Below the pieces are notes generated by a model. The model was not told where the DNA came from. It saw nothing but the letters and a program-made list of their open reading frames with translations, and made no database searches. From Amoeboaphelidium occidentale (lineage: Eukaryota > Aphelidiomycota > Aphelidea): a stretch of 34,577 bases of DNA. Shown piece after piece: positions 1,268-34,577 of this stretch. How positions within the stretch are numbered: the stretch's first letter is position 1; the number at the start of each line of letters is the position of its first letter. The stretch covers positions 22,117 through 56,693 of the forward strand of contig JALGPX010000072.1 of assembly GCA_023515795.1 (NCBI GenBank). The letters are read 5' to 3'. The translations under genes were made by a program, and so were the position numbers.

Positions 1268-1328
1268 TTTCTATTGCTGTAGAAAAACAAAAAAGACAAA
1301 CTCATTATCGTTCATTCCGTTAGTAGAA

Positions 1329-2801
1329 TCATTTAAGCCTTTCCATATCCGCCATCAATTGAGCAAGGCGCTCTTCGATATGTTCTTCCGATACCAAAGT
1401 GGTGATATTATCGTCCAATTGCCGTCGCTCGATTTGCAGTTTACTCGATTCCCGTGTCAGCTCATTCAATCTTCTAAAATTACTCCTCAAAGTTTGAATT
1501 TTATCAAGAGCCTGTACATGCACGCTTTTGCCTTTACTTCTAAGTTCAGCGCTTATCGATTGAAATAAGCGCATGTTTGATCCTTCCAGCGATTCATTCT
1601 CTTTGTTAAGAAGCAAAATATCATGTTTAACCTTTTGAAGTTCTTTCTCCTGATTATTGAGGGCCTCGACGATATCATAAACTTTCTCCAAGAAATCCAT
1701 TCTGTTGGCACTAATTCCCTTTGGTTTTGTTTTTGCCCATTCTGTCAAGGAATTTAAATACTCTCTTTTTGACCTCAATTCTTCCGTGTATTTTAAGATA
1801 AGCGCAGACTCTTCCTTCATCTTCAGTTTCATGAATTTTGCTTCAAGTCTCCTGGTCTCTGTGCTCTTTTCTAGCCTTTTAATTTCTCTTTCAAACGGTT
1901 CCTTGTACTCTAACCACGCTTCTTGAAGCTTAACGTAATCGCGTTCAAGCTGTGCAACTCGTTCTTGTATTTGCTCCGGAGAGCTGTCATTTGTAAGCTC
2001 GAGAAGATGTTTTTGCTTTCGGAGACTTATTTCTGCTTCGTTGTATTTCGCCTTCACATCTTCCAACTCTTCAATGCACTTAATTTAAATTAGCAGGAGA
2101 ACAAGATTCTCACCTTTTTCAATAAATTTCTGTTTGTCTGAACTTCTTGTTCTAATTTAATCAAATCTTCCTCTGAGACACGATCATGTTTATCCTTATT
2201 TGTTTCCATACGTTTACGCAGTTCTTGAACAAATATTTTGAGCTGATCGATATCTTCTGCGGAATTAGAGAAGCCTGGAAGCTCCGGTGCAGATTTTGAG
2301 TTATCTTTCAAGTGGAATGCATCGGCATAATCTTTTCGATGCAGCAGTGGTTTGCCGCCCTTTCCACCCTCAGAGCCCGCTTCAGGCTGTTGCTTAATTA
2401 GCCATTGTATTATCTTTCGTATTTCCATAGGGCTTGGATAGAAAAAGTTACTGAAAGTGACATCTTCCGTGAATCCATGTTGCTATAACCGTAAATGCAT
2501 TGCAAGTGCTGCAATTTACTTTCAATTTTTCGCTTAAGCCAATGCAAATACGATACTTCTCCGCCATTGAAGTTTCTTTGAAGCCTTTTGTATCGATTTT
2601 GTCAGTATCATCAGAGATAAGGGAGTTTAACAGCCGGGCTGTGACCTGAACAAACTCGTAAGACGTCCACTCTTTTAGATCCTTCTCACAGTCCACCAAG
2701 TCCGTTTGCTTTCTTAAGAATTAAGCTTTTTAATGAATTATTTACGTGCGCGAGAGGATAGCTTGAAGCGAAATCTTTAGAATCTTGTCTGTTTTGTCCA
2801 T
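1329..2801 (-). CDS. CCDC22: CCDC22 homologue, CCC/Commander complex subunit
   Basis: Four exons, 2801-2746, 2712-2520, 2482-2114 and 2078-1329, keep one frame of 455 residues. The introns are 33, 37 and 35 nt (GTAAAT, GTAAAT and GTGAGA donors). The N-terminal 110 residues match the NN-CH (calponin-homology-like) domain of CCDC22: the start MDKTDKILKISLQA, then MAEKYRICIGLSEKLK, and across intron 2 NFFYPSPMEIRKIIQWLI. The remainder is coiled coil ending in the conserved CCDC22 C-terminal region (NRMDFLEKVYDIVEALNNQE). Human CCDC22 has 627 residues, so this copy is shorter, mostly in the linker. The known role is endosomal recycling with CCDC93, COMMD proteins and Retriever. The start codon is 21 nt from that of the divergent gene at 2823. 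Confidence 0.82.
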
Positions 2802-31715: not shown

Positions 31716-33014
31716 ATGTCATCATCACTAAATAACATGATGCAGCAACATGCACACGCAATTACAAGGCCTGTACCCGGATCTAATGTCAGAGAACAAA
31801 TAAGAGAGGCGATCAGACTGTCTCAAGAATTCCGCAGCAACAAGTACGAAGAAGTTGCAGTATTTTCCTGTTGCTGGCAAGAGGATGATACCGGAGCAGA
31901 AAAAGATTGCAATCTGTTTGTTGAGACCATCTCGAAGATTCAGAGTGACAGCTGTGCCTTGAAGGCCCGTATTCACAAGATCAATGTTTCTGATGATATC
32001 GAAAGTCTTTATCTTGACTGTGTGACTGCGCGCCAGCAACTTGACACATCGAAACGCTCATTGTTTGTATTTCATTACGCTGGGCATGGAGGTAGCAATA
32101 ATTCTGGTGATCTCCTTACTTTGGCCGTGAATGATCCTAATGCTGCTGTAGGAAGTATTCCGGAAGAACAAATTCGTGATTTCTCAGGTATCGAAAAACA
32201 GTTGGAGCGTGCGACTGATGTAAATCTCAACATGGATGTTCTATTTGTTATGGATTGTAGTCATGCTGCGGCTGGCAGAGGAAGTGTTATGAAACCCGCA
32301 CGGGTTGAGTACATTGCAGCAGCAACGACTGAAGGCATGAACAACTGCAGACAAGATTGTAATTCGTTCACGGGTGCTTGGTGCAAAGCATTTAATCATT
32401 TTCTTAATGAGGGAAAGGTGTTTAACACTCAAGATGTGGTTGACAAAGTTAATTTGGAACGTGTCGATTCAAGTCTTTCTGACTTGTTTATCATAAGGGA
32501 CAATGGCAGTCTTCCTGTTACCTTCAGACCGCCTAAACTAATTGAAAATGGTGCCTCGGAAGGATCTAAATTGTTATTGGTAGCGTTTCACATTGAGGAC
32601 GACGAATATGATTCTAAAATGAGGAGTCTCATTGAATTCTTGAAAAAGATTCCTGCTCCAATTGCCGCTATTAAAGTCTTGAGGACTGACTCGTCGTTGG
32701 TTGATGTACAGAAGCCTGAATTGTTGACGGGNGCAGTCTTCCTGTTACCTTCAGACCGCCTAAACTAATTGAAAATGGTGCCTCGGAAGGAACTAAAATG
32801 TTATTGGTAGCGTTTCACATTGAGGAGTCTCGTTGAATTCTTGAAAAAGATTCCTGCTCCAATTGCCGCTATTAAAGTCTTGAGGACTGACTCGTCGTTG
32901 GTTGATGTACAGAAGCCTGAATTGTTGACGGGATATATTGGCAGGAATTCTGGTTCGACTTCTCTGTTACCCGCAGCCGATAAAACGGGAAACGAAGATG
33001 ACCAGTTTTTATGA
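31716..33014 (+). CDS. Caspase-like (metacaspase-type) protease homologue
   Basis: ATG 31716 opens a frame with a caspase fold: strand VAVFSCCWQEDDTG, LFVFHYAGHGG with catalytic His124, and VLFVMDCSHAAAGRG with Cys181, followed by VEYIAAATTEG and SFTGAWCKAF. These match the His/Cys dyad of clan CD peptidases in fungal metacaspase-like proteins. No proline-rich prodomain, NLR or death-fold domain is attached. The C-terminal 100 residues contain LLLVAFHIEDDEYDSK and KKIPAPIAAIKVLRTD. An N at 32732 separates two haplotype copies; the intact protein would run from copy 1 into the unique end after 32932, about 366 residues in all. Copy 2 has a frameshifting 26-nt deletion. Confidence 0.78.
32506..32731 (+). 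repeat. Allelic copy 1 of the caspase-like gene 3' region
   Basis: 226 nt matching 32733-32932. This copy keeps the frame open through 32731 and stops at the single N. Confidence 0.88.
32733..32932 (+). repeat. Allelic copy 2 of the caspase-like gene 3' region
   Basis: 200 nt, the same sequence lacking 26 nt (present in copy 1 at about 32598-32623), with nearby substitutions. The deletion is bordered by GAG repeats and puts TGA in frame within four codons. It continues into unique sequence. Confidence 0.88.
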
Positions 33015-33156
33015 TGGTCCTAAATGCGTTGGTGAAAGTAATCAGTTTGTTTGGATGTAACTGGCCCTTCGCTGGTGGAGACTGTACAAGTAAATATGCA
33101 AACATAATCACCTGTCTTTAACCACCAATTAAATTTTGCAGTTAGCTGACGAAACA

Positions 33157-33480
33157 TCATGCACGAGTCTTCCTGGAGAACGCAAGCGGTCTTTTACCAC
33201 CATTTGCATTCAAATCCAAGAAAACGTGTCCGATATTTCGTGCAGCGTTAATGTCCCTGTTCCAAACAGTTAAGCAATCTGAATTGCAGACTTTAACCGC
33301 CCAAAACTTTGTCTGTTTCAACTCATGTAAACTGAATGAACATAACTTGCAGGGTTCAGATTGAGCAAGATATACCCCCTCTAAGAAAGCGCATTCGCAC
33401 TCCAGCTCGCAGCATATAAACGCTTGAGCTGGAGCTCTGCGCGATATACATTTATTTTTTAAACTGTTTTCCAGGTCAAC
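33157..33480 (-). pseudogene. Fanzor/TnpB-like nuclease relic, zinc finger and RuvC-III (copy 1)
   Basis: About 105 codons end at TGA 33157-33159. The recognisable part is a zinc finger (SEPCKLCSFSLHELKQ, then VKVCNSDCLTVWN) running straight into NRDINAARNI, the RuvC-III block with its catalytic Asp. That order, CxxC...CxxxC followed by WNRDxNAARNI, is diagnostic of IS607/IS605-type TnpB and their eukaryotic relatives, the Fanzors. Residues after it (KRPLAFSRKTRA) resemble the usual basic end. RuvC-I, RuvC-II and the N-terminal recognition lobe are absent: upstream, the strand runs into the 3' end of the HELGH gene. I see no flanking terminal repeats. This is a remnant of an RNA-guided nuclease gene. 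Confidence 0.8.
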
Positions 33481-33495
33481 TGAAAGGTAGTTAAA
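33190..33495. repeat. Allelic copy 1 of the Fanzor-relic region
   Basis: 306 nt matching 33497-33801 (305 nt); ends at the single N at 33496. Its right end repeats the last bases of the HELGH gene, showing overlap and not tandem duplication. Confidence 0.88.
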
Positions 33496-33496
33496 N

Positions 33497-33757
33497 TCTT
33501 TTACCTTCATTTGCATTCAAATCCAAGAAAACGTGTCTGATATTTCGTGCAGCGTTAATGTCCCTGTTCCAAACAGTTAAGCAATCTGAATTGCAGACTT
33601 TAACCGCCCAAAACTTTGTCTGTTTCAACTCATGTAAACTGAATGAACATAACTTGCAGGGTTCAGATTGAGCAAGATATCCCCCTCTAAGAAAGCGCAT
33701 TCGCACTCCAGCTCGCAGCATATAGACGCTTGAGCTGGAGCTCTGCGCGATATACAT
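33497..33757 (-). pseudogene. Second haplotype copy of the Fanzor/TnpB relic
   Basis: Carries the same zinc finger and NRDINAARNI. A 1-nt deletion relative to copy 1 (GATATCCCCC against GATATACCCCC on the + strand, near 33678) changes the frame upstream of the first CxxC. It abuts N at 33496 and is contiguous on the other side with the HELGH gene. Confidence 0.8.
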
Positions 33758-33764
33758 TTATTTT

Positions 33765-34478
33765 TTAAACTGTTTTCCAGGTCAACTGAAAGGTAGTTAA
33801 ATCAATTTCTACCTCCATTGATTGACCATTCCAGTTACTACGCAGTTGTTTCAATCCAGCATCTTCAGGTTGACTCTTCTGATCATCGGTAAGCAAAGGA
33901 ATGTCTCTCTTGATCCAACGAATAAATCTGGATTCCATGTCTTCCACTGAAGGATATAAACTTGCCTTCATGGTGAGAGTATTTAAAGGTCTTTTGTCAC
34001 GCCATGTACGTTGATTGAACAAAAGTTTTGGTAAAGACTGAGACTTTCCAATTCTCAAGTCGAAACCACCCTTGTTCTTTCTAACATTTGAAGGGATCGC
34101 CGAACCTTCGACTCTCATTTGTGTACATTCAGCAAGCAACAATGAAATATTGCCTTCTAACAGTAGTCCGATGAAGTTAGGAGACAATATTCTCTTTACA
34201 CCGTCTCCATAACCAATGTACAAGCCTTCAATCTGGAATTGATCTTCATCGCTAAGTGACAATGTACCGATTCTGCCACCCAAAGAGTCGAATTCCACAC
34301 AATTGCCGCATTCAATTTCACCAGGATTCAAAGAATCTTCTGTAATTTCAGATCCCGTCTTGTAAATAAACCAGTGGCCCAATTCATGAAGGACAGAAAC
34401 AACAATCAAAGCAGCCCAAATGTCTTCATTTTTCGAGCCAGGTTCAGGCTGGTCTTTAAAAAAGTAAGCCAAATTCAT
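33765..34478 (-). CDS. HELGH-motif putative zinc metalloprotease, 5' incomplete
   Basis: The frame from ATG 34478 encodes 237 residues, with the zincin motif VSVLHELGHWF (H31, E32, H35) after a hydrophobic helix. GEIECGNCVEFDSLGG could supply the third ligand. The rest has no named domain. The open frame continues upstream of the ATG to about 34514 (GAGHWKDILC), where a 3' splice-like TAG occurs, so earlier exons probably lie at or beyond the window edge. Many fungi carry uncharacterised HExxH proteins with the pattern HELGH...E.G..fE...GG, and this appears to be one. Neither substrate nor activity is known. Its 3' end overlaps the Fanzor-relic haplotype repeat. Confidence 0.65.
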   Translation of the reverse strand: MNLAYFFKDQPEPGSKNEDIWAALIVVSVLHELGHWFIYKTGSEITEDSLNPGEIECGNCVEFDSLGGRIGTLSLSDEDQFQIEGLYIGYGDGVKRILSPNFIGLLLEGNISLLLAECTQMRVEGSAIPSNVRKNKGGFDLRIGKSQSLPKLLFNQRTWRDKRPLNTLTMKASLYPSVEDMESRFIRWIKRDIPLLTDDQKSQPEDAGLKQLRSNWNGQSMEVEIDLTTFQLTWKTV

Positions 34479-34577
34479 GCAAAGAATATCCTTCCAATGA
34501 CCAGCGCCATAATACTACGCATAAGTGCCAAAATCATCTTTTGAAAAGCAAGCGCGATTATGGATGACCACAACGTC

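What the first reader, a model, noticed from the sequence alone, without database searches (positions are those of the whole stretch)
33157..33480. Relic of a Fanzor/TnpB-type RNA-guided nuclease
Zinc finger plus WN-RDINAARNI forms the C-terminal catalytic block of the TnpB/Fanzor superfamily. Fanzors are the eukaryotic OMEGA nucleases spread by transposons, known from chytrids and other zoosporic fungi. Only about 105 codons remain, but a source copy and its guide RNA probably exist elsewhere in this genome.
Basis: partly seen in the sequence, partly recalled or inferred. Interest (0 to 1): 0.75.

Follow-up and report, generated by a model that had tools for sequence, protein, structure and literature searches.

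The report
Chimeric Fanzor-tailed short mobile repeat
The fragment is a decayed copy of a short jumping repeat, found at about 45 places in what is probably the genome of an algal parasite (an aphelid), that joins the left end of one kind of element to the tail end of a Fanzor gene.

Summary
The Fanzor signature is real, but this is not a lone gene relic. The second copy (33497-33749) is probably an assembly duplicate around a single n: 52 of 52 flanking bases repeat too. The genome is very probably Amoeboaphelidium occidentale.

The whole feature, 33056-33443, belongs to a short non-autonomous element (354-478 bp in 34 clean copies; at least 45 loci) without detected TIR or TSD, usually starting after TTTAT and ending GGGCCAGTTATT. 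It is a chimera: about 97 nt match the left end of elements carrying an XPG/FEN1-like nuclease, the rest matches a 327-aa Fanzor1 frame and its right end, joined at GCAA. It resembles published "ghost" Fanzor loci. The right end is a candidate omegaRNA, without covariation support; the window copy has lost about 80 nt of it.

Beyond the finding: XPG-like and divergent Fanzor ORFs lie in tandem at 6 of 9 XPG-like loci. Mobilisation in trans, omegaRNA production and nuclease function are inferences.

The parts
33056..33443 (-). Window copy of the short Fanzor-tailed element (long form with an ~80-nt deletion), 388 nt
   Evidence: Boundaries from comparison with 34 clean copies and read in the window
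33347..33443 (-). Left-end module (~97 nt) shared with elements that carry an XPG/FEN1-like nuclease
   Evidence: 55 of 61 bases before GCAA match L095, 14 of 61 match the Fanzor locus L089; left end shared with L091-L096
33389..33442 (-). Left-end hairpin
   Evidence: Majority sequence of the first 60 nt folds at -31.6 kcal/mol, z -4.1; no covariation test made
33157..33350 (-). About 64 codons of a Fanzor1 C-terminus (zinc ribbon, WNRDINAARNI) up to a stop codon
33056..33156 (-). Remains of the 3' UTR and right end (candidate omegaRNA region), ~80 nt deleted between two AGCG
   Evidence: against the majority sequence; ends GTTACA where 30 of 34 clean copies end GTTATT
33496..33496 (.). Single n: inferred assembly join of two overlapping contig ends
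33497..33749 (-). Second, truncated copy; inferred assembly duplicate of the same locus
   Evidence: 98-99% identity; flank 33750-33801 identical to 33444-33495, 52 of 52
33765..34514 (-). Neighbouring 249-aa frame, no Pfam match; the left end lies 15 nt beyond its stop codon

Best explanation
The window holds one decayed copy of a short non-autonomous mobile element. Its left end (~97 nt, with a hairpin) derives from an element that encodes an XPG/FEN1-like nuclease; its remainder is the last ~64 codons, 3' UTR and right end of a Fanzor1 gene, joined at a 4-nt microhomology. Shown by sequence: the family, its constant ends, its chimeric make-up, its spread over at least 45 loci. Inferred: it was spread in trans by machinery that recognises the shared left end next to TTTAT and stops at the Fanzor right end. 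Also inferred: in intact copies the right end is a Fanzor omegaRNA scaffold whose guide is the 3' flank, with TTTAT as target-adjacent motif. The window copy lacks most of that scaffold and is probably inert.
For: Three searches with the window DNA, a right-end and a left-end piece merge into 52 places; taking off six left-end-only places with other bodies and the 327-aa Fanzor locus leaves 45. Of 34 clean copies 25 begin TTTAT[CT]GCGCAGAG and 34 end TTATT. The window copy matches L095 in 55 of 61 bases before GCAA and the Fanzor frame in 28 of 30 after it, against 14 of 61 and 8 of 30 the other way round. The same right end follows the 327-aa Fanzor frame. The Fanzor1 assignment. Ghost loci that keep an omegaRNA but no protein are published for S. 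punctatus (PMC10432273, sections 7 and 11 read).
Against: No transposase was identified. No empty site was found. The omegaRNA is unproven: 184 nt after the long-form stop fold at z -3.4, but shorter right-end windows at only z -0.3 to -1.7, four single copies at z -0.4 to -2.1, and 0 of 55 consensus pairs change on both sides. Nine of 34 left ends deviate from the usual start. The peptide block as a whole still shows a third-position excess (changes 72, 56, 124 by codon position), so coding constraint in at least the source cannot be dismissed. The genome is a draft with joins inside these repeats.
Confidence: 0.8

Rival explanations
1. A simple degraded Fanzor element: a gene that lost its 5' part by decay at this place.
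For: The block is a true Fanzor C-terminus; many other truncated Fanzor copies exist in this genome.
Against: The same 5' boundary, left-end module and 3' end recur at at least 45 loci; independent decay would not give one constant junction.
Confidence: 0.05
2. An internal-deletion derivative of one autonomous element that had this left end, an XPG-like gene, the Fanzor1 gene and this right end, rather than a fusion of two elements.
For: The left end stands upstream of XPG-like ORFs, and XPG-like ORFs are often followed by a Fanzor ORF. The 5' region of the only long Fanzor1 copy is missing, so its own left end is unknown. The 4-nt microhomology fits an internal deletion equally well.
Against: The Fanzor linked to XPG is of another, divergent kind (no Fanzor1 chain within E 0.01), and the relatives of the 327-aa frame listed are not among the loci with XPG-like hits, except C188 and C183-type contigs where they lie elsewhere on the contig.
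Confidence: 0.25
3. A SINE-like retroposon: an RNA-transcribed head fused to a Fanzor tail.
For: 34 of 34 3' ends coincide while 9 of 34 5' starts deviate; one head is joined to several bodies.
Against: No tRNA by ARAGORN in six loci, no Rfam match at E <= 1 in three loci, no TSD of 3 bp or more at the assumed boundaries; the same head begins XPG elements alike over 1.3 kb.
Confidence: 0.07
4. On mechanism only (compatible with the best explanation): the left end is that of a Helitron2-type rolling-circle element, and the short elements arose by transposition that ended at the Fanzor right end.
For: 5' hairpin next to a T-rich target, no TSD; at C119 an 11-nt inverted copy of the usual left-end start stands beside a palindrome near the right end. 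Fanzor1 in Helitron2 elements is published (PMC3627910, section 9 read).
Against: The short elements have no such inverted repeat (453 of 500 shuffles reach the score). The C119 case is a single copy, and with that copy's own mutated left end 60 of 2000 shuffled tails reach the score. No Helitron Rep domain matched, but the control did not ring either.
Confidence: 0.3

Closest known systems
Ghost Spu-1 elements of Spizellomyces punctatus (Saito et al. 2023, PMC10432273; sections 7 and 11 read, passages elsewhere)
   Same: Many short copies that keep element ends and the region downstream of the Fanzor1 stop codon but not the protein; suggested there to act in trans as guide sources
   Different: Spu-1 ghosts are ~550 nt with 30-nt inverted repeats and a small-RNA-proven omegaRNA; here no inverted repeats, the last ~64 codons are kept, the left end comes from another kind of element, and no RNA data exist
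Fanzor1 in Helitron2 elements CRe-1, 2, 3 of Chlamydomonas (Bao and Jurka 2013, PMC3627910; sections 9 and 12 read, passages elsewhere)
   Same: 5' hairpin, T-rich target, no classical TIR, one-sided ends
   Different: CRe elements have asymmetric inverted repeats and often TSDs; the short elements here have neither
IS200/IS605-type non-autonomous elements (PATE-like; recalled, listings only)
   Same: Short, hairpin-bearing, no TIR or TSD, fixed flanking motif
   Different: Prokaryotic; no Y1 transposase match in this genome (control rang in 5 of 14 genomes)

Membership tests
Fanzor1 (protein) | TNB zinc ribbon and RuvC-III block | tested here: met
   Window block below the Pfam cut-off (16.5 and 21.6 of 26.3 bits); the 327-aa copy passes it (35.7 bits)
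Fanzor1 (protein) | Closest to solved Fanzor1 proteins by profile and fold | tested here: met
   For the 327-aa copy, not the window: E 2.3e-23, 5.9e-13, 2.3e-10 to three Fanzor1 proteins with a 14-sequence profile; single sequence only E 0.016 and 0.098; top seven fold matches Fanzor1, TM by query 0.50-0.55
Fanzor1 (protein) | DPG motif and alternative glutamate in RuvC (PMC10711439, passages seen) | tested here: met
   327-aa copy has LDPGR and NEHNTSKLC (glutamate assigned by eye from alignments). Absent from the window copy, which lacks that region or part of it
Fanzor1 (protein) | Complete protein of about 600-700 aa (PMC11423790, passages seen) | tested here: not met
   Window ~64 codons; longest close copy found 327 aa, 5'-truncated
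Fanzor1 system | omegaRNA from the right end | tested here: inconclusive
   Fold z -3.4 for 184 nt, weaker for shorter windows and single copies; no covariation; no RNA data
Ghost Fanzor elements | Both element ends kept, protein lost | tested here: met
   34 clean left-right pairs; the window copy keeps both ends with a deletion in the right one
Ghost Fanzor elements (Spu-1 type) | Terminal inverted repeats | tested here: not met
   Best inverted match 5 nt, reached by 453 of 500 shuffles
Helitron2 | 5' hairpin at the element start | tested here: met
   z -4.1
Helitron2 | Asymmetric terminal inverted repeats | tested here: not met
   Short elements: none; only a single-copy hint at C119
Helitron2 | Rep-helicase gene in the genome | tested here: inconclusive
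   PF14214 no match, but control silent
IS200/IS605 | Y1 (HUH) transposase | tested here: not met
   PF01797 no match; control rang in 5 genomes
IS607 | Serine recombinase linked to the element | tested here: not met
   One resolvase hit in the genome, C172:89432; nearest PF07282 hits on that contig about 62 kb away

The most novel reading that the evidence does not exclude
Aphelids carry a transposon type that pairs an Exo1/FEN1-class flap nuclease with a divergent Fanzor in adjacent or overlapping frames, and the short Fanzor-tailed elements are satellites of it: they borrow its left end for mobility while their right ends supply another Fanzor with dozens of different guide RNAs. The flap nuclease would trim single-stranded ends made during transposition or during repair of Fanzor cuts.
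Probability: 0.3. Interest if true: 0.75.

Novelty: new variant of a known kind. Interest (0 to 1): 0.5.

Why it matters
The natural role of Fanzors is unknown; Saito et al. suggest that ghost loci could act in trans as a guide repertoire (PMC10432273, section 11). A compact genome with at least 45 chimeric ghost copies, 90 Fanzor C-terminal matches and a recurrent flap-nuclease partner would allow that idea, and the chemistry of the transposition, to be tested.

Tried and rejected
Rejected: a real tandem duplication in the window (the flank is duplicated with it). A tRNA-derived or Rfam-known head (three and six loci only). Inverted repeats between the ends and a TSD at the assumed boundaries; TTAT stands on both sides in most copies, but copies with another left tetranucleotide keep TTAT on the right, so I do not read it as a duplication. 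The IS605 route. Selection on the peptide in the short elements now: singletons are 8 synonymous, 26 non-synonymous, 4 stops; changes shared by 3 or more copies are 10, 13, 1; 5 of 34 rows have frame-breaking gaps. I read this as constraint in a source and neutrality now; numbers are small, and the total over all cells (83 synonymous, 124 non-synonymous, 6 stops) points to past constraint.

Led nowhere: empty sites among sequences in hand and through the repeat beside L046 (of 15 matches only the two element-bearing copies reach the insertion point). Covariation of the right end. A shared left end for the XPG-Fanzor copies C146, C129 and C197 (upstream ~500 nt unrelated). A model of the ORF1 C-terminal part (pLDDT 45, not used for a search). 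Identity counts printed are invalid (failed string search) and are replaced. One search folded a majority sequence, not single copies.

Full report
OBSERVATION. The minus strand of 33157-33516 encodes a 119-aa frame ending in a zinc ribbon and WNRDINAARNI. Pfam finds only weak TNB matches (16.5 bits; second copy 21.6; cut-off 26.3). The frame spans an n, and its first half is not Fanzor. Sequence 33190-33495 repeats as 33497-33801 around the single n at 33496, and 52 of 52 bases of the flank beyond the element repeat as well. I infer one locus assembled twice. A similar repeat stands around the n at 32732, and other copies have the same pattern, for example L055.

GENOME. The window is G000:C168:22117-56693 of an 11.3-Mb assembly in 204 contigs. 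A homolog of the Fanzor frame, annotated Amoeboaphelidium occidentale MP638_007218, lies on a contig of 157,554 bases, exactly the length of C188. I infer that species, an aphelid (lineage). The genome has 90 PF07282 matches at E <= 0.001. No paper in the library holds both 'aphelid' and 'Fanzor'.

THE ELEMENT. Searches with the window DNA, a right-end piece and a left-end piece gave 52, 42 and 40 matches; in each only 40 of the 66, 59 and 70 candidates were scored. Merged within 1.2 kb they make 52 places: 40 with body, 34 with right end, 38 with left end, 20 with all three. Six have only the left end and proved to be followed by other bodies; one is the 327-aa Fanzor locus. That leaves 45, the window included. 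From the loci held, one search lists 43 left-right pairs; nine with n (among them all merged copies) were dropped and 34 kept; some of these share one flank, so they are not all independent. Sizes are 354-478 bp, mostly a short form (~392) and a long form (~468). Ends: 25 of 34 begin TTTAT[CT]GCGCAGAG, 34 of 34 end TTATT (30 GTTATT). None has a TSD of 3 bp or more at these boundaries, and no inverted repeat above chance joins the ends. Identity to the majority lies between 0.93 and 0.99 in most 20-column bins and is lowest (0.84, 0.90) around the junction. The window copy is a long form lacking ~80 nt of the right end and lies 15 nt beyond the stop codon of a neighbouring frame.

THE FANZOR PART. 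The closest longer copy found is P0004, 327 aa at C185, with LDPGR, NEHNTSKLC and WNRDINAARNI, followed by the same right end. It passes PF07282. Alone it matches solved Fanzor1 only at E 0.016 and 0.098; a 14-sequence profile matches S. punctatus Fanzor1 at E 2.3e-23, P. parasitica Fanzor1 at 5.9e-13 and G. theta Fanzor1 at 2.3e-10. Its predicted fold (pLDDT 75.6, pTM 0.67) has seven Fanzor1 chains as best PDB matches, TM by query 0.50-0.55, with rmsd of 7.8-12.6. Relatives: 13 proteins, among them A. protococcarum, A. occidentale and metagenomes.

THE LEFT PART. Behind the six left-end-only places the first 90-103 nt are those of the short element and the bodies differ. L091 (C119) and L095 (C38) are 81% alike over 1.3 kb and carry an XPG_I domain (36.4 and 30.0 bits, cut-off 24.9); L091 matches Exonuclease 1 and flap endonuclease 1 chains (best E 4.9e-7). 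Two more XPG-like loci, C5 and C189, have protein-level matches to the left-end half of the window frame at the same distance of about 360 nt; I did not check these in DNA. At the junction the window copy follows L095 before GCAA (55 of 61; 14 of 61 to L089) and the Fanzor frame after it (28 of 30; 8 of 30 to L095).

XPG-FANZOR PAIRS. The 13 XPG-like matches fall at nine loci. At six (C119, C146, C129, C197, C188, C11) a PF07282 match lies 2.3-2.9 kb downstream on the same strand; frames. At C38 the contig ends first; C5 and C189 have no listed PF07282 match. With 90 matches as independent points the chance is 0.016 per locus and 1e-9 for six of nine; the copies are related, so this overstates it. 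Seven linked or similar Fanzor frames are 28-85% identical to the first and keep D202, E371 and D405 (their catalytic role is recalled). Their profile matches LaTranC and Cas12f1, no Fanzor chain, within E 0.01. Database searches gave one ORF1 homolog and three homologs of the linked Fanzor, each with only the best ~8,000 candidates scored. C146, C129 and C197 share a right end by eye but not the upstream ~500 nt; the left end of the short elements is thus tied to the C119/C38 kind only. 'Fanzor' with 'flap endonuclease' occurs in two library papers: a preprint speaks of 'candidate Fanzor flap endonuclease homologs' in animal viruses (passage); the other was seen as a listing only. A search for at least three of Fanzor, FEN1, XPG and transposon listed 8 of 11 papers, of which one held Fanzor. 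Within these searches I found no description of the gene pair; the library misses most subscription journals.

RIGHT END AS GUIDE RNA. In S. punctatus the region between stop and right end is an omegaRNA, and 134 ghost loci lack the ORF (PMC10432273, section 7). Here 184 nt after the long-form stop fold at z -3.4, with a stem that takes in the terminal GTTAT, but windows of 77, 93 and 129 nt reach only z -1.0, -1.7 and -0.3, and the last ~85 nt of four copies z -0.4 to -2.1. None of 55 consensus pairs changes on both sides, and the consensus structure does not keep the terminal stem. Copies this similar could hardly show covariation. So the omegaRNA is plausible by position, not by structure.

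MECHANISM. Shown: constant ends, dispersal, composite make-up. Inferred: mobilisation in trans through the left end, arrest at the Fanzor right end, guide RNAs from intact copies. The transposase is open. Whether the two parts came from two elements or from one lost autonomous element is also open, since the left end of the Fanzor1 element is unknown; I give the second reading 0.25.

Noticed in passing
L076+L091 (C119), L078 (C146), L079 (C129), L080 (C197), L083 (C188), L075 (C11): XPG/FEN1-like ORF followed on the same strand by a divergent Fanzor ORF at 6 of 9 XPG-like loci.
   Followed up: partly
L093, L094 (C110:9200-10600, C145:69500-70820): Another element sharing the same left end, 95% alike over 460 nt, without the Fanzor tail.
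   Followed up: partly
L076 near the Fanzor stop (C119 right end): 11-nt inverted copy of the usual left-end start followed by a palindrome; among the loci held, the only place of this motif outside left ends. Single copy.
   Followed up: partly
L090:1127-1693 (-), C172: A stand-alone serine-recombinase frame, the only PF00239 match in the genome.
   Followed up: no
window 32506-32932: Another repeat around a single n (32732), at the end of a frame with a weak caspase-like match; looks like the same kind of assembly join.
   Followed up: no
L058 (C87): In this copy the loop of the left-end hairpin reads in the inverse orientation.
   Followed up: no
G000:C125:16825-17121: A copy of the short element lies within an open frame of 998 aa, possibly taken into a coding sequence.
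   Followed up: no
L089:295-1278 (-) and 1294-2301 (+): Two Fanzor frames of different kinds lie head to head, 15 bp apart.
   Followed up: no
L069 near 1011: A copy of the short element interrupts what looks like the RuvC-I motif of another Fanzor frame (read by eye from the flank).
   Followed up: no
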